Source of the DNA: a virus
Length of the DNA: 20,026 nt
IMG/VR virus record: IMGVR_UViG_3300025853_000885
Location: 1 to 20,026 of that record
Direction: 5' to 3' (one strand)
Positions 10,316 through 20,026 of the stretch are shown piece after piece; within the stretch, counting starts at the first letter, position 1, and each line of letters opens with the position of its first letter. Under the pieces are notes generated by a model, which was not told the origin of the DNA, did no database searches, and was given only the letters and a program-made list of their open reading frames with translations. Made by a program: the position numbers and the translations under genes.

Positions 10316-12909
10316 TATATAATTCCTTGAAACAAGCCAACTTGAGGGGCTTTATACGTGGGTAGATCTTCAATAGCGCCTATTATTTCAGGAGCTTGGT
10401 AGTTTCTCTTAAATGGTATATCTTTGAACAAAGTGTCAGTAACTGCTTGGGGTTTTAACATTCCTGATGCAAGCCCTAAAGTAAGACCTGCGCCTAACCC
10501 AGCACCCACTCCTGCACCAGTACCAGTGCCTTCTCCAGTGCCTTCACCACCTCCTGTTCCTGTATCTCCGGCTCCTACACCTGTTTCTGCTGCTCCGCCT
10601 GTTGGGTCTTCTACAGGCTCTACAGGTTCTTCTACAGGCTCTACAGGCTCTATAGGTTCTACAGGGTCAAAGGCTACAGGGCCACCTGTAAGCGGTACTT
10701 CAGGGAAGTCATCAGCTAAAGGATCTGTAGGCTCAATATCTAAATCAGAAGCAGGTTGCTCCTTAAAATAGTCTGTTAGACGGGCAACCCAAGATACTGC
10801 ATCGGTAACGTCAAAGTCTCCAGTTACATCTGGAGGAGGTGGGCCACTGGGAACAGTCTGATATTCTGTAGGGCCACCGGATAGCCACTTGTCTAACTCT
10901 AGCTGTAGACCTTCTTTAACATTAGGGTCTTCTTCAGCATCGATAGCTTCTCTTAACTGAGCAGCAATAATGTCTGTGGATGTAGGCTGTTCTTCTCCTA
11001 CATCTGTAGGTTGTGCAACAACAGGCTCTGCCGGAGTTCCTTCATCACCACCGCCCCCTGTAGTGGGGTCTTCTACAGGTTGCTCTACAACTGGCTCTGC
11101 TATATCTAATGGAGGATCTTCTGGTGGTGGTACTTGCTCGACAGGGACTACAACAGGAAGGTCATCAAACTCAGGATAATCAGGTATCGTTGTCAACAAT
11201 GCTTCATCAAGAGCTTTTTGTTGTGCAATATCTCCAACACCATCTCCATCAGAGTCTGCCCACTCAGTAGGGTCATTTGGGAATAGATCAACAACGTCGT
11301 AAACACCATCGCCGTCTGTGTCTGTGGTTCGTTGTATCCTATTTTGTTCTTTTTGCTCTGCTATACGTTGCTGTACGTCTGCTTCAGCGGTTCTACGTGC
11401 TTCTACCTGAGCTACTCTGTAAGCATCTTGAGCGTCTTTGTAAGTACCCTGTTGTAGCTTTATAGCATCTTCATAATTGGCTTGAGCTACACTTTCTGCT
11501 GTACGTGCTTGGTTTACTTTATTACGCGCATCTAGTTTTGCAGCGTCTTCTGCTGCCTTTGCTCTTTTGTAATTAGAACTAAAAGGCCCATAACGATTAC
11601 GCATATAATTAGCATAGCCTTCAGCACTAGCTACGGAAGCATTTGTTTCTTCTATTACAGTTGATACGTTGTCTGATGCAGCTTGTGTCGCTGTTTCAGC
11701 CGCAGTTACTGCATCATTTGCAGCAATAACTTCCTGAGTATCTTCAGGATTTGTTAGCGCGTCTACAGCGGCAGTAGCAGCCGCCGCTATGTCTATAGCG
11801 TCTTGTTCGCTAGTATCTTCTTCTGCTTGAGCATCCGCTGTTGCAGCAATGTTATAGATTACACTAGGGTCAAAAGAACCATCTGGGCCTGCTCCGGGGC
11901 CGCTGTAGGTTATACCGCCAGACGTTGCTGCTGCACCTAGTTCTTCAAGAATAGCAGCAGATTCTTTATCTAAATACTGATCTGCAACACTCTTTCCTGT
12001 AAGAATTGCAGCTATAGACCCTGTTAAATTAAAAGTAGCGCCAGACTCTGCAAAAGAAGGTATAACTGTACCTAACGCAGTAGTAGCCGCTGAATTTATT
12101 GCGTTTGTTGCTGCGGTTACTGTAGAATAAGTGCCTTTAGCTGCTGCTTTAAGAGCTATACCTACTTCTTTAGTAGCGTAAGATATTTTTTGAGCTACAC
12201 TAAGACCTTCTGCTGCTTTTAATCCCGCAGAAATTGCAGGGGCAATTACAGAAGCTCCAATAAAAGCAGCTACAAAAGGTATAGATGCTTCAAGACTGTC
12301 TCGCCAATCAGTTTTCTTTTCTTTTACGTAGTAAGTACCATACTGACCTACTTCACCAATTTGATTATAGTAGTCGCCAGTAGCTCCTGTTTTTAATTCT
12401 TGAGTTAGTTTACCACCAGCATTTTCTTCATTATAGTAAGCGGGGGTAATACCTAAATTTAATTTTAACTCTACACCATCTTCATTTGTTACTGAAGTAG
12501 GGATGTTTTCTTGTTCAATATACTGTTGTACTTGGTCATTATGCTCTTGCATTGCAGTAGCATAAGTTTCAAAATTAGAATAGATAGCGCCGGGAGTTTG
12601 CTTAGCTTGCTCCATACGCTTGTTATACCTGTCTCCTTCTCCCGGAACTACAGGCACATACTTAGGCTGTAGCGCAGCAAAAGTCTTAATCTGCTGTAGC
12701 TGCTCATTAGACAGCGGTGTGTTGTTATTTGCGGAAGTAACTTGATTAGCCGCTTGCCAAGAAGCTAGATATTGCTCATTGACAGGAATTGACATATCTT
12801 GATAATTAGGAACTTCCCCCATAAACTCAAGCACTTGTTCGCTTAAGTCATCGGGGAGAGCAAAACCACCTTCAAATAAATCTAAGTCTGGAGCAAAACT
12901 TTCAGCCAT
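10315..12909 (-). CDS. Large multi-region protein with a TSP3-like calcium-binding segment (864 aa), function unknown
   Basis: Not recognised as a whole. Visible regions: a Gln/Asn-rich soluble N-terminus (1-200); a hydrophobic Ala-rich segment (209-235) that could span or insert in a membrane; Ala-rich helices (236-330 and 365-425); a long charged coiled-coil-like part (430-525, KRAKAAEDAAKLDARNKVNQ); a thrombospondin-type-3-like double calcium site (529-561, DTDGDGVYDVVDLFPNDP then DSDGDGVGD); a Pro/Glu-rich linker (580-770) with VEPVEPVEEPVEPVED; a Gly-rich stretch (773-816); and a C-terminal tail (EIIGAIEDLPTYKAPQVGLF). It is coupled by TAATG to the holin-like gene upstream and the adaptor downstream, so it is very probably made late. 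It may be a virion or ejection protein; an envelope-spanning or adhesive role is also possible. Confidence 0.75.
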   Translation of the reverse strand: MAESFAPDLDLFEGGFALPDDLSEQVLEFMGEVPNYQDMSIPVNEQYLASWQAANQVTSANNNTPLSNEQLQQIKTFAALQPKYVPVVPGEGDRYNKRMEQAKQTPGAIYSNFETYATAMQEHNDQVQQYIEQENIPTSVTNEDGVELKLNLGITPAYYNEENAGGKLTQELKTGATGDYYNQIGEVGQYGTYYVKEKKTDWRDSLEASIPFVAAFIGASVIAPAISAGLKAAEGLSVAQKISYATKEVGIALKAAAKGTYSTVTAATNAINSAATTALGTVIPSFAESGATFNLTGSIAAILTGKSVADQYLDKESAAILEELGAAATSGGITYSGPGAGPDGSFDPSVIYNIAATADAQAEEDTSEQDAIDIAAAATAAVDALTNPEDTQEVIAANDAVTAAETATQAASDNVSTVIEETNASVASAEGYANYMRNRYGPFSSNYKRAKAAEDAAKLDARNKVNQARTAESVAQANYEDAIKLQQGTYKDAQDAYRVAQVEARRTAEADVQQRIAEQKEQNRIQRTTDTDGDGVYDVVDLFPNDPTEWADSDGDGVGDIAQQKALDEALLTTIPDYPEFDDLPVVVPVEQVPPPEDPPLDIAEPVVEQPVEDPTTGGGGDEGTPAEPVVAQPTDVGEEQPTSTDIIAAQLREAIDAEEDPNVKEGLQLELDKWLSGGPTEYQTVPSGPPPPDVTGDFDVTDAVSWVARLTDYFKEQPASDLDIEPTDPLADDFPEVPLTGGPVAFDPVEPIEPVEPVEEPVEPVEDPTGGAAETGVGAGDTGTGGGEGTGEGTGTGAGVGAGLGAGLTLGLASGMLKPQAVTDTLFKDIPFKRNYQAPEIIGAIEDLPTYKAPQVGLFQGII
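10603..10671 (-). repeat. Short Pro-Glu-Val coding repeat
   Basis: Residues 747-769 of the 864-residue protein are built from PVEP/PVEE units. At DNA level this appears on the plus strand as reiterated CTCTACAGG-like 9-12 base units. It is prone to slippage and would be expected to vary in length between relatives. Confidence 0.75.
11227..11325 (-). other. Segment encoding two TSP3-like Asp-rich calcium-binding repeats
   Basis: Encodes residues 529-561 of the 864-residue protein: DTDGDGVYDVVDLFPNDPTE, then a second DSDGDGVGD. The DxDGDGxxD loops and the intervening aromatic-Pro-xDP spacing are characteristic of thrombospondin type 3 repeats, which bind calcium and are common in surface proteins of bacteria. 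Confidence 0.85.
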
Positions 12910-13247
12910 TATTTGCTACCCCACTTGGATACAGCTTTCATACCAAAACTAGCCGCTATTGCAGCGCCTAAGAATCCTTTGTAGTAATCTGGCATTGTCT
13001 CCAAGACTATAAATCCCTGTTCAACGTAAGGAACCATTGAAGGTATAAACGCACCTATCAATGGCAAACTAAGGATAACGGAAAACCACTCATCCTTCCA
13101 AGAAGTCTGAGAAGCACTAGCTTGTTGAGTTTCCCAATCAGCGTCAGCATCTATGCGTCGCATCTTGGAGTCATGGACAGCTTGCTTTTCAGCAGCTTTG
13201 TTTTTAAGGAAAGTACCTGCAATACTTGTGATAGCACTAAGCCACAT
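12909..13247 (-). CDS. Holin-like membrane protein (112 aa)
   Basis: Starts at the ATG at 13247 with a good AAGGTGAG ribosome site, just after the capsid terminator. The N-terminus (WLSAITSIAGTFLK) is a short hydrophobic helix. Residues 15-50 are charged and helical, and SWKDEWF leads into two hydrophobic segments (about 53-76 and 90-104), giving two or three spans. This layout, with W(K)DEW before the first long span and a C-terminal GAAIAASFG segment, resembles the three-span holins of gene transfer agents and marine phages (from memory; not checked). Its stop overlaps the start of the 864-residue gene (TAATG). The alternative is a virion-associated membrane protein; no endolysin is nearby. 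Confidence 0.68.
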   Translation of the reverse strand: MWLSAITSIAGTFLKNKAAEKQAVHDSKMRRIDADADWETQQASASQTSWKDEWFSVILSLPLIGAFIPSMVPYVEQGFIVLETMPDYYKGFLGAAIAASFGMKAVSKWGSK

Positions 13248-14297: not shown

Positions 14298-15077
14298 CTA
14301 TTTGACCCGTTTCTCAGCATACGCTCTCATTATTTCATCTTGTAGAGCGGCATACCTATGAGGGTCATCTTTCATAAGTCTAATAATGTCTGCGCGTCTA
14401 TAGATCTTCTTGGGGCTTGATTCAGAGCTACCACTAGCACTACCTGTACTAGCTGACTTTACTGCTTGCTTACGGCTTTGTTTTTCAACACTAGCTGCTT
14501 GACCAATCATCTGTTGACGTTCTTTCCAAAGGTTGAAAAGTTCGTCAGCAGCTTCATAATCATACTGCTTGTCTGCCGCTACAAAGAGCTTAGTTCTAAT
14601 TTTAGATGCTTCAATCCACTCTGCAAATTTAGTATCCTGTAAGATACTTTCCATGTCAGGGTGATTAGCCTTCAGTGCTGACAATGCTGTTTGCATCTTG
14701 TACTGTTGACTAACTGATTCAGCTTCCTTAATCTTAGGGTGATTCTGAATAGCCTGTGCTACTGCCTTTTCAGGGTCAGTAAAGAAGTCTATTTCTTCGA
14801 CTTGTTCTTGTTGTTCGGGTGCCGGTGGAGAGTTATGTGTGGATATATATGTATCAACAACCTTACGTAGTTCACCTACTTCAGAACTTTGACGCCCTAG
14901 TAGCTTTTCAGCTTCTTGGTGCATCTGTACAAGTTCCTTAGCAGACTTGCCTTGGTATTTCTCAGGAATCTCAGGTTCACTAGTGGTTGCCTGTTCTTCC
15001 TCTTGAGGTTGCTCGTGTTCAGCAAAAACGTCCTCTTGTGACGGTTGCTGCTCCTCACGCTCAATTATTTTAGCCAT
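14298..15077 (-). CDS. Capsid scaffolding protein (259 aa)
   Basis: Acidic, Glu/Gln-rich N-terminus (1-36), then EIPEKYQGKSAKELVQMHQE and AEKLLGRQSSEVGELRKVVD, a block I know from scaffold proteins of T7-like and marine podoviruses. Mostly helical. A Ser-rich linker near 215-225 precedes a basic C-terminal helix (YRRADIIRLMKDDPHRYAAL, ending AEKRVK), the region that contacts the coat protein in this family. Located immediately upstream of the capsid gene, as expected. A GGAG ribosome site lies about 8 bases before the ATG. In assembly it templates prohead formation and then leaves. No protease motif is seen. Confidence 0.88.
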   Translation of the reverse strand: MAKIIEREEQQPSQEDVFAEHEQPQEEEQATTSEPEIPEKYQGKSAKELVQMHQEAEKLLGRQSSEVGELRKVVDTYISTHNSPPAPEQQEQVEEIDFFTDPEKAVAQAIQNHPKIKEAESVSQQYKMQTALSALKANHPDMESILQDTKFAEWIEASKIRTKLFVAADKQYDYEAADELFNLWKERQQMIGQAASVEKQSRKQAVKSASTGSASGSSESSPKKIYRRADIIRLMKDDPHRYAALQDEIMRAYAEKRVK

Positions 15078-15113: not shown

Positions 15114-15137
15114 AAAAAAAGGGTTCTAGCTAGGAAC
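15114..15137 (-). terminator. Weak hairpin plus T-run between zinc-ribbon and scaffold genes, possible attenuator
   Basis: On the minus strand GTTC-N7-GAAC (15137-15123) forms only a 4-bp stem at the stop codon of the zinc-ribbon gene. It is followed after CC by seven consecutive T (15120-15114). The T-run is convincing but the stem is too short for an efficient terminator. If it works at all it would trim, not stop, transcription into scaffold and capsid. Confidence 0.3.
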
Positions 15138-15357
15138 TTTGCTTTTTCTCGTATTGGATGTGACTCGCTCTAGCCTTAGCCCAACGCCTAGTGGCGTCAG
15201 GAAAGTCTCCGCTGATGGGGTCTAGTTTAGACCTTACAGGCGAGATAATCCGTTTAGCACTGTAACCACACTCGCACCTCGCAGTGTGTTGGTCTACAGG
15301 TACTAATGCTTCAAATACATGCCCGTTAAGACACTTAAAGTCGTACAGTCTTAACAT
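15130..15357 (-). CDS. Small zinc-ribbon protein, FmdB-like (75 aa)
   Basis: Residues 5-31 read YDFKC, GHVFEALV and CECG: Cys9-x3-His13 and Cys28-x-Cys30 form a plausible zinc site in the pattern of FmdB-type ribbons (Y-F-C-xx-GH-F-E). The rest is basic (RRWAKARASHIQYEKK). Its ATG overlaps the stop of the 86-residue gene (TAATG). Similar zinc ribbons lie next to scaffold/capsid genes in other marine phages as I recall, but their role is not known; head assembly or transcription modulation are guesses. The metal site is seen directly; the role is not. Confidence 0.72.
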   Translation of the reverse strand: MLRLYDFKCLNGHVFEALVPVDQHTARCECGYSAKRIISPVRSKLDPISGDFPDATRRWAKARASHIQYEKKQSS

Positions 15358-15693: not shown

Positions 15694-15801
15694 TTACATT
15701 TTTCTACCAGCAGGCTTGCGAGCAGGTTTGCGCTGCATTGCTTTTTTCTTCTTAGGTGGTCGGCCTACTTTGCTTCCGTAAGTTCCTTTACCGTATGGCA
15801 T
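15694..15801 (-). CDS. Very small Lys/Arg-rich protein (35 aa)
   Basis: MPYGKGTYGSKVGRPPKKKK, then AMQRKPARKPAGRKM and stop. AGAGGA sits about 9 bases upstream of the ATG, and the start follows the previous stop by 1 base. The MPYGKGTYGxKxGRPP opening is one I recall from small ORFs in marine phages, which supports a real gene despite its size. Extremely basic with no acidic residue; the GRPPKK patch resembles an AT-hook-like DNA-binding motif. Binding to packaged DNA is a reasonable guess only. Confidence 0.65.
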   Translation of the reverse strand: MPYGKGTYGSKVGRPPKKKKAMQRKPARKPAGRKM

Positions 15802-15802
15802 A

Positions 15803-16054
15803 TTAGTTTTCCTCTTTTTTAGGTGGGTCTCTAAGTAATAGCTTAGTACCTACGTCGGATACAGGCACTAATCTAGGTTCGCAGTAAGCGTCAAAGTGTC
15901 TAGTCTTTGGCATGACAATGGCATGTTTACTGACATTTTGATGTACTAAAGCTGTCTTATATTCCAAACAGCTTGTAAGTTCTCTAAAAGCAAGTTCTAA
16001 TCGTGGCTCACCTTGTTCTAGTATCAGTAGTACAAAGATAAGCATAGTTTCCAT
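15803..16054 (-). CDS. Small protein of unknown function with hydrophobic N-terminus (83 aa)
   Basis: Starts METMLIFVLLILEQGEPRLE; the first dozen residues are hydrophobic but too short for a confident signal or span. The centre contains a Cys/Tyr pair (SCLEYKTALV), then KHAIVMPKTRHFDAYCEPRL and an acidic/basic end. A second ATG three codons in is an alternative start. Its ATG overlaps the stop of the preceding gene (TAATG) and the ribosome site is weak, so coupling is likely. I do not recognise a family with confidence. Composition and tight packing favour a real gene. Confidence 0.55.
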   Translation of the reverse strand: METMLIFVLLILEQGEPRLELAFRELTSCLEYKTALVHQNVSKHAIVMPKTRHFDAYCEPRLVPVSDVGTKLLLRDPPKKEEN

Positions 16055-16293
16055 TAGATTCTTCTTTTCTGTTTAATCGCCTGTGTCTTAACAGCCGTTG
16101 GTTTTCGTAAGTCCCAAGTTAAGATTATCAGCTTGGTGTCCCATGCTGTGCCAAGGATTCTTGGGCCTTGATTACGCACATACACCTCCGCCCCGTATCC
16201 ACATTTGCCTTTGTTGAACAACAGCCATTTCTTTGCAACTCTGTGTCGCTCTGCTGGTGGTTGCACATAGCGTAACATGCGGTATTCGCGCAT
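16054..16293 (-). CDS. Small basic protein of unknown function (79 aa or longer), start uncertain
   Basis: Reads MREYRMLRYVQPPAERHRVA, then KKWLLFNKGKCGYGAEVYV and LGTAWDTKLIILTWDLRK, ending KQKRRI. Trp/Lys-rich with a plausible globular pattern. The ATG at 16293 has no ribosome site. The frame stays open upstream (DYDPRNPTLFCD precedes the ATG) into the end of the 99-residue gene, with no ATG, GTG or TTG found there, so the real start may be unusual or reached by coupling. A competing frame starts at ATG 16325 and ends at 16128 but is Cys-rich and unlike a protein. The stop overlaps the next start (TAATG). Confidence 0.5.
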   Translation of the reverse strand: MREYRMLRYVQPPAERHRVAKKWLLFNKGKCGYGAEVYVRNQGPRILGTAWDTKLIILTWDLRKPTAVKTQAIKQKRRI

Positions 16294-16328
16294 GTCGCAG
16301 AACAGAGTGGGGTTTCTTGGGTCATAGT

Positions 16329-16628
16329 CTATTTGGCTAAGAGAGCTTGTACGAGGGCTTGTATCTGCTCGTTGGTCTTCTCTTGAATCTTCTCCTGACG
16401 GGCCAGAGAGTTGACTATTGCTTCCACCTTCTGCTCCGTCACTGCTTGTGCCTGTCCGTTGGCTTGGGCCTTTTTTGCAGCTTCCTCCGCTATGGCAGCA
16501 ATACGATCTCTGTCCTCACTAGCGTGGGCTGTATTGGCCTGTAGTACACCCCAAGCAACTGCTAGACTTACAGCAGCAGCAGCAATAGGTAAAGCCCATT
16601 GAGGGATTCTAATTGAGTTCTCAGACAT
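16329..16628 (-). CDS. Membrane-anchored coiled-coil protein (99 aa)
   Basis: A good AAGGA ribosome site precedes the ATG. Residues 9-31 form one transmembrane span (WALPIAAAAVSLAVAWGVLQ). The remaining 65 residues are charged, Gln/Ala/Glu-rich and heptad-like (DRDRIAAIAEEAAKKAQANG, EQKVEAIVNSLARQEKIQEK). One N-terminal anchor with an extended helix outside the membrane is the layout of inner-membrane spanins, so a lysis role is one option. A virion or packaging role is equally possible given its place between portal and scaffold. No outer-membrane spanin partner was seen in another frame. Confidence 0.65.
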   Translation of the reverse strand: MSENSIRIPQWALPIAAAAVSLAVAWGVLQANTAHASEDRDRIAAIAEEAAKKAQANGQAQAVTEQKVEAIVNSLARQEKIQEKTNEQIQALVQALLAK

Positions 16629-16640
16629 TATTTTTCCTTG

Positions 16641-16862
16641 TTATACTGCCCGTAAGTTACCGGACTTTTTGTTTACTACTTTTGCGCTAGTTTCTAGGAT
16701 AAAAGCAGAATGCTGTTTAATCATTTCCAGAATCTTTAACTGTATGTCAATGTCTTGTGCTTCAATTAAAGAACCCCCTAAGTACGAGATAGTCTCTGAG
16801 TTGAGACGCAAAGCGCTTGTTTCAGGGTCATCGAACACGGGTATAAACTCAGATTCTATCAT
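16641..16862 (-). CDS. Small acidic protein of unknown function (73 aa)
   Basis: MIESEFIPVFDDPETSALRL start, helical middle (LIEAQDIDIQLKILEMIKQH) and a basic end (VVNKKSGNLRAV). AAGGA lies 8 bases before the ATG and 9 bases separate it from the preceding stop. The helical middle with alternating hydrophobic residues suggests a small helical bundle or an assembly partner. I do not recognise the family. Its acidic N-terminus contrasts with the basic proteins around it. Confidence 0.58.
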   Translation of the reverse strand: MIESEFIPVFDDPETSALRLNSETISYLGGSLIEAQDIDIQLKILEMIKQHSAFILETSAKVVNKKSGNLRAV

Positions 16863-16871
16863 ATCCAGTCC

Positions 16872-17129
16872 TTATTTTTTTCTTGACTTAGCCCCTGAAC
16901 ATTTCCAACGCTTGCGCGATAGGTTGTTTGGAGTATTTGGGTCGTTTTGCTTTTTCTTAGGCAGTCTTTTTTTGATGCCTAAACTTCTAGCGCAATAACT
17001 ATCCCCTTTGCTAGTTCCGGGCTTGACTCTAGGGCCACCACCTTTTGCTTTACCGGCTTGTCCGTAGGAAACTTTCTTACCACTAGAGGTTATCTTTACT
17101 TTTGCTTTTCCTTTTCTTGGTGTAGCCAT
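16872..17129 (-). CDS. Lys/Gly-rich basic small protein with a Cys pair (85 aa)
   Basis: Opens MATPRKGKAKVKITSSGKKV, then YGQAGKAKGGGPRVKPGTSK, GDSYCARS, a KKRLPKKKQND segment, and TPNNLSRKRWKCSG near the end. I recall similar proteins with the GQAGKAKGGGxRVKPGTxKG and NTPNNLSRxxWxC pattern in marine phages, function unknown. Very basic, with only three or so acidic residues. The start overlaps the stop of the 49-residue gene (TAATG). Its charge suggests contact with nucleic acid; that is inference. Confidence 0.7.
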   Translation of the reverse strand: MATPRKGKAKVKITSSGKKVSYGQAGKAKGGGPRVKPGTSKGDSYCARSLGIKKRLPKKKQNDPNTPNNLSRKRWKCSGAKSRKK

Positions 17130-17278
17130 TAAGTATCCTCTTGTTTAGTCTTGCGCGTCTGCGCTGGCCTTTTCGTTTCATTCTTGGATTCTAGTTCCTT
17201 AATCTTGTTTTCAAGTTCTTCAAACTTGGCATTAATTTGGTCGATAGCGTCTTGGAATTGTGCTGAAGTAATTACCAT
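17129..17278 (-). CDS. Short coiled-coil protein (49 aa)
   Basis: MVITSAQFQDAIDQINAKFE, then ELENKIKELESKNETK and a basic tail ending KQEDT. The ribosome site AAGGA lies in the last codons of the portal gene. The ATG is two bases after the portal stop, and its own stop overlaps the next start (TAATG). The heptad pattern (I-x3-F-x2-L-x3-I-x2-L) indicates a short coiled coil. Position and couplings support it as a real gene; it could be a portal-binding factor, unproven. Confidence 0.62.
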   Translation of the reverse strand: MVITSAQFQDAIDQINAKFEELENKIKELESKNETKRPAQTRKTKQEDT

Positions 17279-17279
17279 T

Positions 17280-19310
17280 TTACTGTCCTTGTCCCTCTAC
17301 AGGGGGTCGCATGGGTTGATTAAGTTGCGTGGGTTTCTGAGAAAGTTTTAAGTCAATCTCTTTCTCTTTCAACATAGTTTGTGCCATCTTCAGCCTACGT
17401 TCAAACTCCTTATCGTCTTGGTCGCCTGCCTGTAGGTTGGTTGTGATAGCTTTAATCCTGTCAATCTCTAGCTCCTGTGGTGCCAACTGAGTCTCTACAG
17501 CCATCTTCTGTGCTCTGGCTTGTGATTCAGTAGCTTGACCATTCAACGCTGCTGTCTGAGACTGCTGGAAGGCAAGTTGTGCCTGTTGTGCAGCCTGAGC
17601 CAACTGTTGTTGCTCTGGAGTAGGTTGTGATTGCTGTGCTGCCTGTTGTAAACGAGCAGTTAGTTCTTCACGGTTTGACAGGTTCATGTTGTCAATTATG
17701 GACTCTATAAGTGTGTTGTACAGAGGTGAGTCCTGTGACATTGTTTGTAAGAGTTGTACAAGTTGTGTAACTTCGTACTCACGAGCAATGATGCCTAGAG
17801 TAGACGCTGCATTGAACTTGTAGTCAGCAACGGGATAGTTGTCAGGATCAAACTGCATGTAACGACACGCTGCCTTCTTGACAAACGGAACCAAGAAACA
17901 ATCTTGGAAGTTAACTAATGTACGCTTGTGACGCTTAATGATAGCGCCAAGAGACATACTAATACCAGCAGCAGTCGCATCACCATTGATACTCCCCGGA
18001 ATGCCAGCGGAGTCTATGGCCCCTGTTGACATCTGAACCATACGCTGTAGTGCGTTAGCTTGCTCAAATGTAATCTGGCTTACTTGTCCAAAGTTGAAAG
18101 GTTGTAATACTTGTCGTGGGTCGCCATTGGTTAGAATAATCTTACCCGGACGAACTTGTGGCCTAGACCCTCTAGGAAGCCGTGTGGCGTCCATAGCGAG
18201 CATTGGGTGTACAGTAAGGGATAAAGCGTCAATACGTGCGCGAAGCTCTGTATCAAGCGCCTTTTGGCTGTTATAGCCCTTCTCACAAACACCGCGACCC
18301 CAAAACCTTCCCGGAACAACATCCCAAGGGAAAGCTACGATAGGACGGTCTTGCATCATGTAAGGGTTTTCTTCAGCTTTCAGTAGTATACCACCGTTAG
18401 CAATAACAATAATTGCTTCTACGTAGTAGCCCTGATTAGCTTCTTCTTCCTCACCTTCAGGAGTCAGAGACTGTACTTCAGCAATGTCCTCATCATCCTC
18501 AAGCAGTGCTTCCTGCTCAGTCTTCATCAGAAGATGACGAGGTACTTTACCATAGTATTTAGTAAGACGTACTTTGTCCTCATCGTAACTAGCTAACTCT
18601 TGGTCAGGCTCTAGTTCGTAGTCAGACGCAGCATTACCTACATATACGTCCCTATAGACGCCAGCTTCTTGTAGCTCCTCTACAAGATGCCTAGAGACAA
18701 ACTCATCAACCGCACAGCCTAGCGCACTTTCTACATCAGTGGCTATGGGGTCAATGAGAAAGTTTTGAGGAAGGACGGGTCGCAGTTTGACCACTGTACG
18801 GTCAGTCACATTAACGCCTACTGCTGTCAACTCACCACCCATGATGGGCTGAGTAGCGGGTGCCATCTCTTTGACTTCCTCAAGCACTACCTCTGCAACT
18901 CCTGTGCCGAATACGGCTGAGTTGATAAGGCACTCTCCTACAGACTGTCTTAGCTTTGTTTTTTCAAAGTCAGCGTGGAGTTTGGTTCTCAGGTATACAA
19001 TATCCTGACTATCTTGGTCATCCATGTCATCAGAGATTGTGAAGTAAGTCCCACGACCAAACGTGGCTTCCTCAATCTCAGCAACACTAGATTCTACAGC
19101 CTGCTGCAATGCAGGACTAATTATACGGCTTCGTTCACTCTCGCGGTCTGAGTCCTGTGATGCCCAGATACCACGCCAGAGTCTATAGTATTCTTCGTAC
19201 TTGGCTGCGTAGTTAGCTTCGTAATGGTCACGCCAAGTGTTGCATTTGTCTATTACCCAATCTTCAACACGCTGCTCAGTAGCAAGAGTGTCATTGTCAC
19301 CGTATTCCAT
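17280..19310 (-). CDS. Portal (head-to-tail connector) protein (676 aa)
   Basis: The N-terminal WRDHYEANYAAKYEEYYRLW, RSRIISPALQQAVESSVAEI and EEATFGRGTYFTI motifs, the GTGVAEVVLEE segment, the DRPIVAFPWDVVPGRFWGRG block near the middle, and SAGIPGSINGDATAAGISMS before the helical stem are typical of podovirus portals. The ring sits at the capsid vertex and is the channel through which terminase packages DNA. The C-terminus from about residue 550 is Gln/Ala-rich and coiled-coil-like (QQAAQQSQPTPEQQQLAQAA onward), likely the crown or barrel. The length is normal for this type. The ribosome site AAGG lies about 8 bases before the ATG. It sits after TerL and the small basic genes, as in related phages. 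Confidence 0.9.
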   Translation of the reverse strand: MEYGDNDTLATEQRVEDWVIDKCNTWRDHYEANYAAKYEEYYRLWRGIWASQDSDRESERSRIISPALQQAVESSVAEIEEATFGRGTYFTISDDMDDQDSQDIVYLRTKLHADFEKTKLRQSVGECLINSAVFGTGVAEVVLEEVKEMAPATQPIMGGELTAVGVNVTDRTVVKLRPVLPQNFLIDPIATDVESALGCAVDEFVSRHLVEELQEAGVYRDVYVGNAASDYELEPDQELASYDEDKVRLTKYYGKVPRHLLMKTEQEALLEDDEDIAEVQSLTPEGEEEEANQGYYVEAIIVIANGGILLKAEENPYMMQDRPIVAFPWDVVPGRFWGRGVCEKGYNSQKALDTELRARIDALSLTVHPMLAMDATRLPRGSRPQVRPGKIILTNGDPRQVLQPFNFGQVSQITFEQANALQRMVQMSTGAIDSAGIPGSINGDATAAGISMSLGAIIKRHKRTLVNFQDCFLVPFVKKAACRYMQFDPDNYPVADYKFNAASTLGIIAREYEVTQLVQLLQTMSQDSPLYNTLIESIIDNMNLSNREELTARLQQAAQQSQPTPEQQQLAQAAQQAQLAFQQSQTAALNGQATESQARAQKMAVETQLAPQELEIDRIKAITTNLQAGDQDDKEFERRLKMAQTMLKEKEIDLKLSQKPTQLNQPMRPPVEGQGQ

Positions 19311-19312
19311 AG

Positions 19313-19573
19313 TTATACCTTACGTGATTTTTTTGTTTTCTTAGCTATCTTTTTAGGTTGAGAGCTATGCTGTTTCCCCGCTGCTGTGTCTTTTCTTTTC
19401 TTTCGTGTTGTCGCAGCGTACTCTTTGGAAGACAATGACTTTATAGCTTTTTCAGGCAAGTAACGCTCTCCTGTGGCTTTTGAGCCTTGAGTGCTAGGCT
19501 TACCTGACTTTGTTCTCCACTTTTGCTTTGTCCACTTTTTTAGGGACTTCTGTGGTTTCTTTAGGCCAGCCAT
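19313..19573 (-). CDS. Small basic protein, DUF5872-like (86 aa)
   Basis: MAGLKKPQKSLKKWTKQKWR, TKSGKPSTQGSKATGERYLP, EKAIKSLSSKEYAATTRKKR, then a Lys-rich tail with QPKKIAKKTKKSRK. The WTKxKWxTKSGKPS...GERYLP...EYAATTxKKR pattern is one I recall from viral proteins, possibly DUF5872, with no known function. Starts by overlapping the stop of the 57-residue gene (TAATG); the portal gene begins 3 bases after its stop. Net charge is strongly positive, pointing to DNA or RNA contact, which is inferred. Confidence 0.75.
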   Translation of the reverse strand: MAGLKKPQKSLKKWTKQKWRTKSGKPSTQGSKATGERYLPEKAIKSLSSKEYAATTRKKRKDTAAGKQHSSQPKKIAKKTKKSRKV

Positions 19574-19746
19574 TACTTTTTACCTTTCACTTTCTTTTGT
19601 ACGGTCTTGCTTAAATCCTTTAAGTGAAACAATCGTTGGCTTGTTTTGGTATGGGACTTGTTTGTGTGCAACTCACCATTAGGCATCTTATGCGTATTGC
19701 CTTTCCACTCCTTGCCTGACTTTGTGTAGTGTGGCACTCCTTTCAT
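19573..19746 (-). CDS. Small basic protein (57 aa)
   Basis: MKGVPHYTKSGKEWKGNTHK, MPNGELHTNKSHTKTSQRLF, then HLKDLSKTVQKKVKGKK. The PHYTKSGKEWKGNTHKMPNG layout is one I recall from small ORFs in many marine phages. The start overlaps the previous stop as ATGA, and its stop overlaps the next start as TAATG, so it sits in a coupled chain. It has about six histidines and many lysines but no cysteine pairs. Function unknown. Confidence 0.7.
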   Translation of the reverse strand: MKGVPHYTKSGKEWKGNTHKMPNGELHTNKSHTKTSQRLFHLKDLSKTVQKKVKGKK

Positions 19747-19928
19747 CTGTATCCCCCGCCTTTGGCTTTATATTCTTTGGCAAGCATCTGGGCTTTACGG
19801 GCCGACCACTGGCCGGGTTTTCCACCTTTACCACCTGCCTTAATCTTGTTGAATAAGTTTTTACGCATAGTGGGCTTTGTATAGTTTCCAGCTTCATTTA
19901 CTTTTGATTTAGGTTTTTTTGTAGCCAT
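19743..19928 (-). CDS. Small basic protein (61 aa)
   Basis: MATKKPKSKVNEAGNYTKPT, MRKNLFNKIKAGGKGGKPGQ, then WSARKAQMLAKEYKAKGGGY. The RKxLFNKIKAGGKGGxPGQWSARKAQMLAKxYK core is a widespread marine viral pattern as I recall, with no known activity. Its start overlaps the stop of the terminase gene (TAATG), and its stop overlaps the next ATG (ATGA). Another frame over the same bases (19688-19897) lacks a sensible start context and was not chosen. Confidence 0.75.
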   Translation of the reverse strand: MATKKPKSKVNEAGNYTKPTMRKNLFNKIKAGGKGGKPGQWSARKAQMLAKEYKAKGGGYR

Positions 19929-20026
19929 TAGTACCCCGTAAGTTCGTCCAACACCTCATGGTCATCTATTTCAAAATCGTATGTATACGCTACCTTAGCC
20001 AACTGGTCTATGTAAGCTAATGCGTC
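19928..20026 (-). CDS. Probable terminase large subunit, C-terminal end (partial)
   Basis: The frame is open from the right edge to the TAA at 19928-19930: 32 residues starting DALAYIDQLAKVAYTYDFEI. The DALAY motif followed by a short helix and an acidic tail matches the end of the nuclease domain of phage large terminases, where the Asp is next to the last metal-binding site. Its place directly upstream of the small basic genes and portal fits the ATPase/nuclease that cuts and pumps DNA into the prohead. Only the very end is visible, so the call rests mainly on the motif plus context. Confidence 0.6.
   Translation of the reverse strand, partial: DALAYIDQLAKVAYTYDFEIDDHEVLDELTGY

What the first reader, a model, noticed from the sequence alone, without database searches (positions are those of the whole stretch)
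15694..19928. Set of five very basic small proteins spread through the head module
Proteins of 61, 57, 86, 85 and 35 residues, each dominated by Lys/Arg/Gly and each tied to its neighbours by TAATG/ATGA overlaps or gaps of a few bases, lie between terminase and scaffold. They share charge and style but not sequence. Being made with the packaging machine, they could neutralise or organise DNA in the head, or act on host nucleic acid. As far as I know none has an assigned role, so this is the best candidate here for an undescribed system.
Basis: inference. Interest (0 to 1): 0.6.

Follow-up and report, generated by a model that had tools for sequence, protein, structure and literature searches.

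The report
Swappable basic mini-proteins in phage head operon
Marine phages carry, between their DNA-packaging and head genes, a few very basic mini-proteins drawn from a shared, interchangeable stock; in cyanobacterial phages one of these domains sits on a protein found in purified virus particles, so the set probably binds the genome in the virus head.

Summary
The five basic ORFs exist where stated (net +12 to +25, pI 10.4-11.7; neighbours mostly acidic), lie in the head operon and are under strong purifying selection. P1 (61 aa) and P3 (86 aa) are the two halves of DUF5872, split into adjacent genes; they are fused in some phages and in many alphaproteobacteria, where a Rho_N-like nucleic-acid-binding domain follows. 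P4 (85 aa) is a divergent DUF6321 relative. P2 and P5 have no named family.

The five do not travel together. P1 and P3 always do (15 contigs both, 41 neither, 0 split). The rest are exchanged: most relatives carry several small basic genes between terminase and scaffold, from a stock of at least 12 modules filling alternative slots. Two sister contigs, 97-98% identical on both flanks, differ there only by P1-P2-P3 against M7-M6. In cyanomyoviruses several modules are strung into one protein (T4-GC119) ending in DUF6321; DUF6321-tailed proteins were detected by mass spectrometry in S-SCSM1 and S-CREM2 virions.

Best explanation: nucleic-acid-binding proteins packaged in, or acting at, the head. 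DNA binding and virion location of the window's own proteins are untested.

The parts
19743..19928 (-). P1, 61 aa, net +15; N-terminal half of DUF5872 as a free gene; phrog_17747; slot A
19573..19746 (-). P2, 57 aa, net +12; optional gene, often between P1 and P3 (HKMPNGxLHTxKSHxKTS motif); no named family
19313..19573 (-). P3, 86 aa, net +25; C-terminal half of DUF5872 as a free gene; phrog_14910; confidently folded helical domain; slot A
17280..19310 (-). portal gene, separates slot A from slots B and C
16872..17129 (-). P4, 85 aa, net +25, two conserved Cys (YCARS...RWKC); divergent DUF6321 relative; slot B
16054..16293 (-). 79-aa basic ORF (net +14), a sixth basic gene of the interval, membership unclear
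15694..15801 (-). P5, 35 aa, net +13, MPxGKGTYGSKVGRPP start with a GRP core; slot C
14298..15077 (-). scaffold gene, downstream boundary of the interval
19928..20026 (-). C-terminus of the terminase large subunit, upstream boundary of the interval
   Evidence: L281 homologue

Best explanation
The five proteins are members of a larger, exchangeable stock of small basic nucleic-acid-binding modules that marine tailed phages express with the head and packaging genes. Shown here: P1 and P3 are one unit (split DUF5872), P4 is a DUF6321 relative, the modules occupy alternative slots and are swapped cleanly between near-identical phages, and in cyanomyoviruses several modules are strung together in one virion protein that ends in DUF6321. 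Inferred: they bind the packaged DNA, or DNA at the portal, enter the head with it, and there organise the genome or travel with it into the host. Folded, strongly constrained sequences suggest defined binding rather than simple charge neutralisation. DNA binding and virion location of the window's own proteins are not shown.
For: Location beside terminase, portal, scaffold or capsid genes in several unrelated phages. Virion mass spectrometry of DUF6321-tailed proteins: S-CREM2 gp137, 4 unique peptides (PMC10665884 Table 3), and S-SCSM1 gp29, marked 'virion protein' in the record of a paper that reports 45 virion proteins by MS (PMC9602691). T4-GC119 of S-SM1, S-SM2, P-SSM2 and S-RIM8 strings several of the same modules between gp15/gp16 and gp17. 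Rho_N-like tail on the alphaproteobacterial P1-P3 fusions. P1-P3 partnership 7/0/0/15 and 8/0/0/26, fused in either order elsewhere. Slot replacement: recurring in 120. Purifying selection. P3 model pLDDT 88.8.
Against: No virion proteomics was found for any phage with free-standing P1, P2, P3 or P5. Peptides of the MS-detected proteins may come from parts other than the basic domain (S-CREM2 gp137: 4.1% coverage). The S-TIM5 record labels several neighbours 'virion structural protein and packaging' but not its P4 relative. No nucleic-acid-binding family is hit by the window proteins themselves, and P3 has no solved structural relative. The Rho_N matches are just below Pfam's cut-off.
Confidence: 0.52

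Rival explanations
1. Assembly or packaging helpers absent from the mature particle: small basic adaptors that bind the acidic scaffold, portal, capsid protein or terminase and leave after assembly.
For: Always among terminase, portal, scaffold and capsid genes; those partners are acidic; P3 is a folded, specific-looking domain.
Against: DUF6321-tailed proteins were detected in mature virions of two cyanophages. The same modules occur beside portals only 24-28% identical, unlike a dedicated partner of one structural protein. Alphaproteobacteria keep the P1-P3 protein, with no head genes among the few neighbours checked.
Confidence: 0.2
2. Host-directed proteins made late or ejected with the DNA: they bind host nucleic acid or its guards (nucleoid, ribosome, RNA, anti-phage nucleases), as T4 internal proteins can. 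Swapping then reflects host or defence differences.
For: Clean cassette swaps between near-identical phages resemble accessory, host-matched loci; homologues exist in bacteria.
Against: Each module is strongly conserved over saturated synonymous distance, unlike fast-evolving anti-defence genes. Nearly identical modules serve phages of hosts as distant as Methylophilales, Roseobacter, SAR116 and SAR11. No PADLOC search or host assay was done.
Confidence: 0.18
3. Bulk charge neutralisation only: protamine-like polycations with interchangeable sequence, selected just for charge.
For: All are strongly basic and functionally replaceable by unrelated basic proteins in the same slots.
Against: P3 is predicted folded; invariant Trp, Gly, Pro and Cys positions and low pN are not needed for charge; P1 and P3 are never separated.
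Confidence: 0.1

Closest known systems
DUF5872 (PF19197), also listed in the algal giant virus CpV-BQ1 (PMC12085832)
   Same: P1 plus P3 correspond to its two halves; alphaproteobacterial P1-P3 fusions reach the family cut-off.
   Different: In the window the family is split into two adjacent genes with P2 between; the window's own halves are below the detection limit of the Pfam model.
DUF6321 (PF19846) and cyanomyovirus T4-GC119
   Same: P4 shares the S[YF]CARS...RWKC core; T4-GC119 ends in DUF6321 and lies in the neck/terminase region; relatives detected in virions.
   Different: P4 is free-standing with its own N-terminal half (GKAKVKxTxSGKKVSYGQAG) and is not itself recognised by the Pfam model.
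T4 internal head proteins (IPI-IPIII)
   Same: Small basic phage proteins of a variable locus, made with the head (from general knowledge).
   Different: T4 IPs carry a targeting peptide cut by the prohead protease gp21; no such peptide or protease was identified here; no sequence relation.
Ascovirus P64 and other viral DNA-condensing proteins (PMC6163548); DVNP of algal giant viruses (PMC11953307)
   Same: Basic virion proteins; P64 combines repeated two-cysteine modules with basic stretches and condenses the genome, a parallel to the beaded T4-GC119.
   Different: No sequence match was found; DNA condensation is demonstrated for P64, not for these.

Membership tests
DUF5872 (PF19197) | direct match of window P1 or P3 to the Pfam model | tested here: not met
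   no hit at E<=1
DUF5872 (PF19197) | homology to full-length members through intermediates | tested here: met
   P3 is 50-59% identical to alphaproteobacterial fusions, two of which pass the cut-off (27.7 and 28.8 against 27.5 bits); the adjacent pair in L325 matches the N-half and C-half above the cut-off
DUF6321 (PF19846) | direct match of window P4 to the Pfam model | tested here: not met
DUF6321 (PF19846) | shared core with DUF6321 proteins | tested here: met
   hhalign probability 97.9%, E 3e-13 over 36 columns; P4 matches the same PHROGs (4689, 11180, 10346, 727) as DUF6321 proteins; DUF6321-positive proteins fill the same gene position in relatives
T4 internal head proteins | located inside the virion head | not testable with these tools
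   only DUF6321-tailed relatives have virion MS evidence (PMC10665884, PMC9602691)
T4 internal head proteins | N-terminal targeting peptide cut by a prohead protease | not tested
   no protease gene was noticed in the interval, but the genome is incomplete
Protamine-like condensing proteins | low-complexity, unfolded Arg/Lys-rich chain | tested here: not met
   P3 pLDDT 88.8 with defined helices; P4 ordered in its C-terminal half only; P5 could fit
AT-hook proteins (P5) | RGRP core flanked by basic residues | tested here: inconclusive
   P5 has VGRPPKKKK; GRP is conserved in homologues but not RGRP

The most novel reading that the evidence does not exclude
A slot-organised, interchangeable repertoire of at least 12 basic mini-domains serves as a common genome-organising kit of marine tailed phages, made either as separate genes or as one beaded virion protein, and shared at the level of single domains with algal giant viruses and with bacterial Rho_N-fused proteins.
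Probability: 0.3. Interest if true: 0.85.

Novelty: new variant of a known kind. Interest (0 to 1): 0.62.

Why it matters
Tailed phages are usually thought to pack DNA with metal ions and polyamines rather than dedicated nucleoproteins, T4-type internal proteins being an exception (general knowledge). A widespread, strongly conserved and swappable set of basic mini-proteins in the head operon of abundant marine phages would give a large number of 'hypothetical' late genes one testable role, and would link phage, giant-virus and bacterial domains of unknown function (DUF5872, DUF6321, DUF5754).

Tried and rejected
Pfam and NCBIfam on the window's own basic proteins: no family. PDB sequence search for P3 and P4 and PDB fold search for P3: nothing. 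Bacterial gene neighbourhoods: UvrD beside one Sphingomonas homologue, but no shared neighbour among the few loci checked. A first co-occurrence count was discarded because the P1 profile contained a P1-P3 fusion and recognised P3 (seen); rebuilt profiles gave. A first module scan missed most M6 genes through a faulty pattern, corrected. Cryo-EM paper on P-SCSP1u: no decoration protein in the capsid, and the passages read do not mention gp18. Supplementary tables of PMC3037559 could not be read, so the S-SM1 virion status of T4-GC119 rests only on notes in related records. P5 was too short for a collection scan. Literature searches on DUF6321 and on basic internal phage proteins gave no prior description of this set.

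Full report
Observation. The window is a 20,026-base IMG/VR virus record. Read on the minus strand it runs: terminase C-terminus (cut), P1, P2, P3, portal, 49-aa, P4, 73-aa, 99-aa, 79-aa, 83-aa, P5, 86-aa, 75-aa, scaffold, major capsid protein, tail genes. The five basic ORFs have the stated coordinates and lengths. Their net charges are +15, +12, +25, +25 and +13 with 0-5% acidic residues; 18 of the 20 other listed genes are neutral or acidic, and a 79-aa ORF (net +14) is a sixth basic gene. The genes are real: against relatives, synonymous sites are near saturation while few residues change (median pS and pN: P1 0.82, 0.11; P2 0.88, 0.16; P3 0.84, 0.18; P4 0.75, 0.065; P5 0.66, 0.20). Relatives were retrieved best-first, so high identity is selected for, but the contrast between pS and pN is not.

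Distribution. P1 and P3 are phrog_17747 and phrog_14910, both of unknown function. P1 is 64-90% and P3 52-81% identical in isolates of very different phages: HMO-2011, Roseobacter CRP phages, pelagiphages of several types, Methylophilales MEP401/402; S-CRES1 has P3. The portal, in contrast, is only 24-28% identical to any isolate's. P4 is 71% identical in CRP-7 and 66-72% in Vibrio phages, with distant relatives in S-TIM5.

P1 and P3 are one unit. In 162 fetched loci both lie on the same strand with P1 first, 76 with a gap of at most 60 nt and 75 with 60-400 nt, of which 60 also carry P2. In 22 relatives chosen by capsid protein and spanning the interval, 7 have both, 15 neither, none one alone; in 34 other contigs from a portal-anchored scan the numbers are 8, 26 and 0. 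Two isolates, S-CRES1 gp97 and Hodr gp15, have the domains fused. A genome scan found 102 relatives of P3: Methylobacterium, Sphingomonas, Acetobacteraceae and others carry P1-P3 in one protein followed by a Rho_N-like tail (best 23.9 bits against a cut-off of 24.9), and some Pelagibacteraceae contigs carry the fusion in reverse order, P3-P1. Two alphaproteobacterial fusions pass the DUF5872 cut-off, one over model positions 2-109 of 116 and one over 2-80. In relative L325 an adjacent pair of small genes matches the N-half and the C-half of DUF5872 above the cut-off. P1 and P3 are therefore best read as a split DUF5872. DUF5872 and DUF5754 are both listed in the algal giant virus CpV-BQ1 (PMC12085832).

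P4 is a DUF6321 relative. Window P4 does not hit Pfam, but shares its C-terminal core with DUF6321 proteins (hhalign 97.9%, 36 columns), and close relatives of the window phage carry a genuine DUF6321 protein in the same place. DUF6321 relatives occur in 550 phage records, mostly cyanomyoviruses. In the cyanomyoviruses examined the domain is the C-terminus of a larger protein, T4-GC119, which strings several small modules: KYG, M12 (SLxxWF, like the C-half of DUF5872), M11 (KDACYxKV...PSAYASG), CWGY and DUF6321, between the neck genes gp13-gp15 and terminase gp17. The same modules are free genes in podoviruses: M11- and M12-like genes beside P4 in CRP-7; P5, M6 and DUF6321 between scaffold and capsid genes in HTVC022P.

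Virion evidence. In S-CREM2, gp137 (108049-109521) was detected by mass spectrometry in CsCl-purified virions with 4 unique peptides (PMC10665884, Table 3); it ends in DUF6321. In S-SCSM1, gp29 is annotated 'virion protein' in the record of the paper reporting 45 virion proteins by mass spectrometry (PMC9602691); it carries M12, M11, CWGY and DUF6321. None of this concerns free-standing P1, P2, P3 or P5.

Replacement. In the 22 capsid-anchored relatives the terminase-scaffold interval yields many small basic ORFs in sense and one in antisense (a few of the sense ORFs are spurious, lying out of frame inside larger genes). Named by motif, they come from a stock of at least 12 modules; 20 of 22 contigs have two or more, in 15 combinations. 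Slot A (terminase-portal, in the nearer relatives) holds P1(-P2)-P3 or (M7-)M6: never P1 with M6 (0/7/11/4, p=0.004). Slot B holds P4 or M10 (DUF5754-like, 18.8 bits, below cut-off): 0/11/7/4, p=0.004. Slot C holds one of P5, M8, M9 (7, 7 and 4 contigs, never two). In the second sample of 34 contigs the exclusions recur: P1-M6 0/8/11/15 (p=0.034), P4-M10 0/5/17/12 (p=0.044), and no slot-C doubles. These p-values ignore relatedness, and P4 against M10 partly follows portal clade. The strongest evidence is pairwise: L281 and L285 are 98.1% identical up to the end of terminase and 96.8% from the start of the portal, with P1-P2-P3 (about 600 bp) in one and M7-M6 (about 300 bp) in the other. L267 and L279 show a second swap inside 96% and 94% flanks. 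L270 and L279 differ at slots B and C, M10-M8 against P4-P5, inside 90.5% and 88.8% flanks. The slot-C proteins M8 of L270 and P5 of L279 share the same C-terminal tail, so that exchange fell inside the gene. In more distant relatives the P1-P3 pair lies after the portal instead.

Fold. P3 is predicted with mean pLDDT 88.8 as a mainly helical domain with no solved relative; similar predicted viral proteins exist. P4 is confident only in its Cys-containing C-terminal half.

Mechanism. Best reading: nucleic-acid-binding modules that enter or serve the head. One copy of each of the five gives about +90 charges; for a genome near 36 kb (inferred from relatives' contigs of 35-37 kb), 72,000 phosphates, neutralising 1% would take about eight copies of each. 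Bulk neutralisation thus needs high copy number, while the conservation and predicted folding of P3 favour a defined contact. Shown: unity of P1-P3, family assignments through intermediates, replacement, and virion location of DUF6321-tailed relatives. Inferred: DNA binding, packaging of the window's proteins, and any role after ejection.

Comparison with what is known. The set works most like T4 internal head proteins (general knowledge) or, in its beaded form, like ascovirus P64, a basic virion protein with repeated two-cysteine modules that condenses the genome (PMC6163548). It is not a member of either by any test made here.

Verdict.

Noticed in passing
   Followed up: partly
window 17083-17181, minus: 32-aa very basic ORF (MKRKGQRRRARLNKR...) out of frame across the 49-aa/P4 junction; a similar 33-aa ORF is kept in L281 and L285.
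   Followed up: no
window 15130-15357, minus: 75-aa zinc-ribbon-like protein (PF09723, below cut-off); S-SM2 also has a PF09723 protein right after its terminase gene.
   Followed up: no
window 12909-13247, minus: 112-aa protein of phrog_2524 (unknown function, membrane-like); relatives lie near P1-P3 in several unrelated phages.
   Followed up: no
L053:5556-6518: P3 domain fused to a DUF6496-like stretch and to a region also found in tail tape-measure proteins, another link to virion proteins.
   Followed up: partly
HMO-2011 gp63 (L001:3918-4235): P1 preceded by a KYGxKKGExVFYA module that also occurs at the start of T4-GC119 in S-SM1.
   Followed up: yes
P-SCSP1 records, e.g. OM416772.1 11870-11917: A P5-like start (MPxGKGTYGSKVGRPP) lies unannotated between the capsid gene and the DUF6321 gene in 17 Prochlorococcus podoviruses.
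   Followed up: partly
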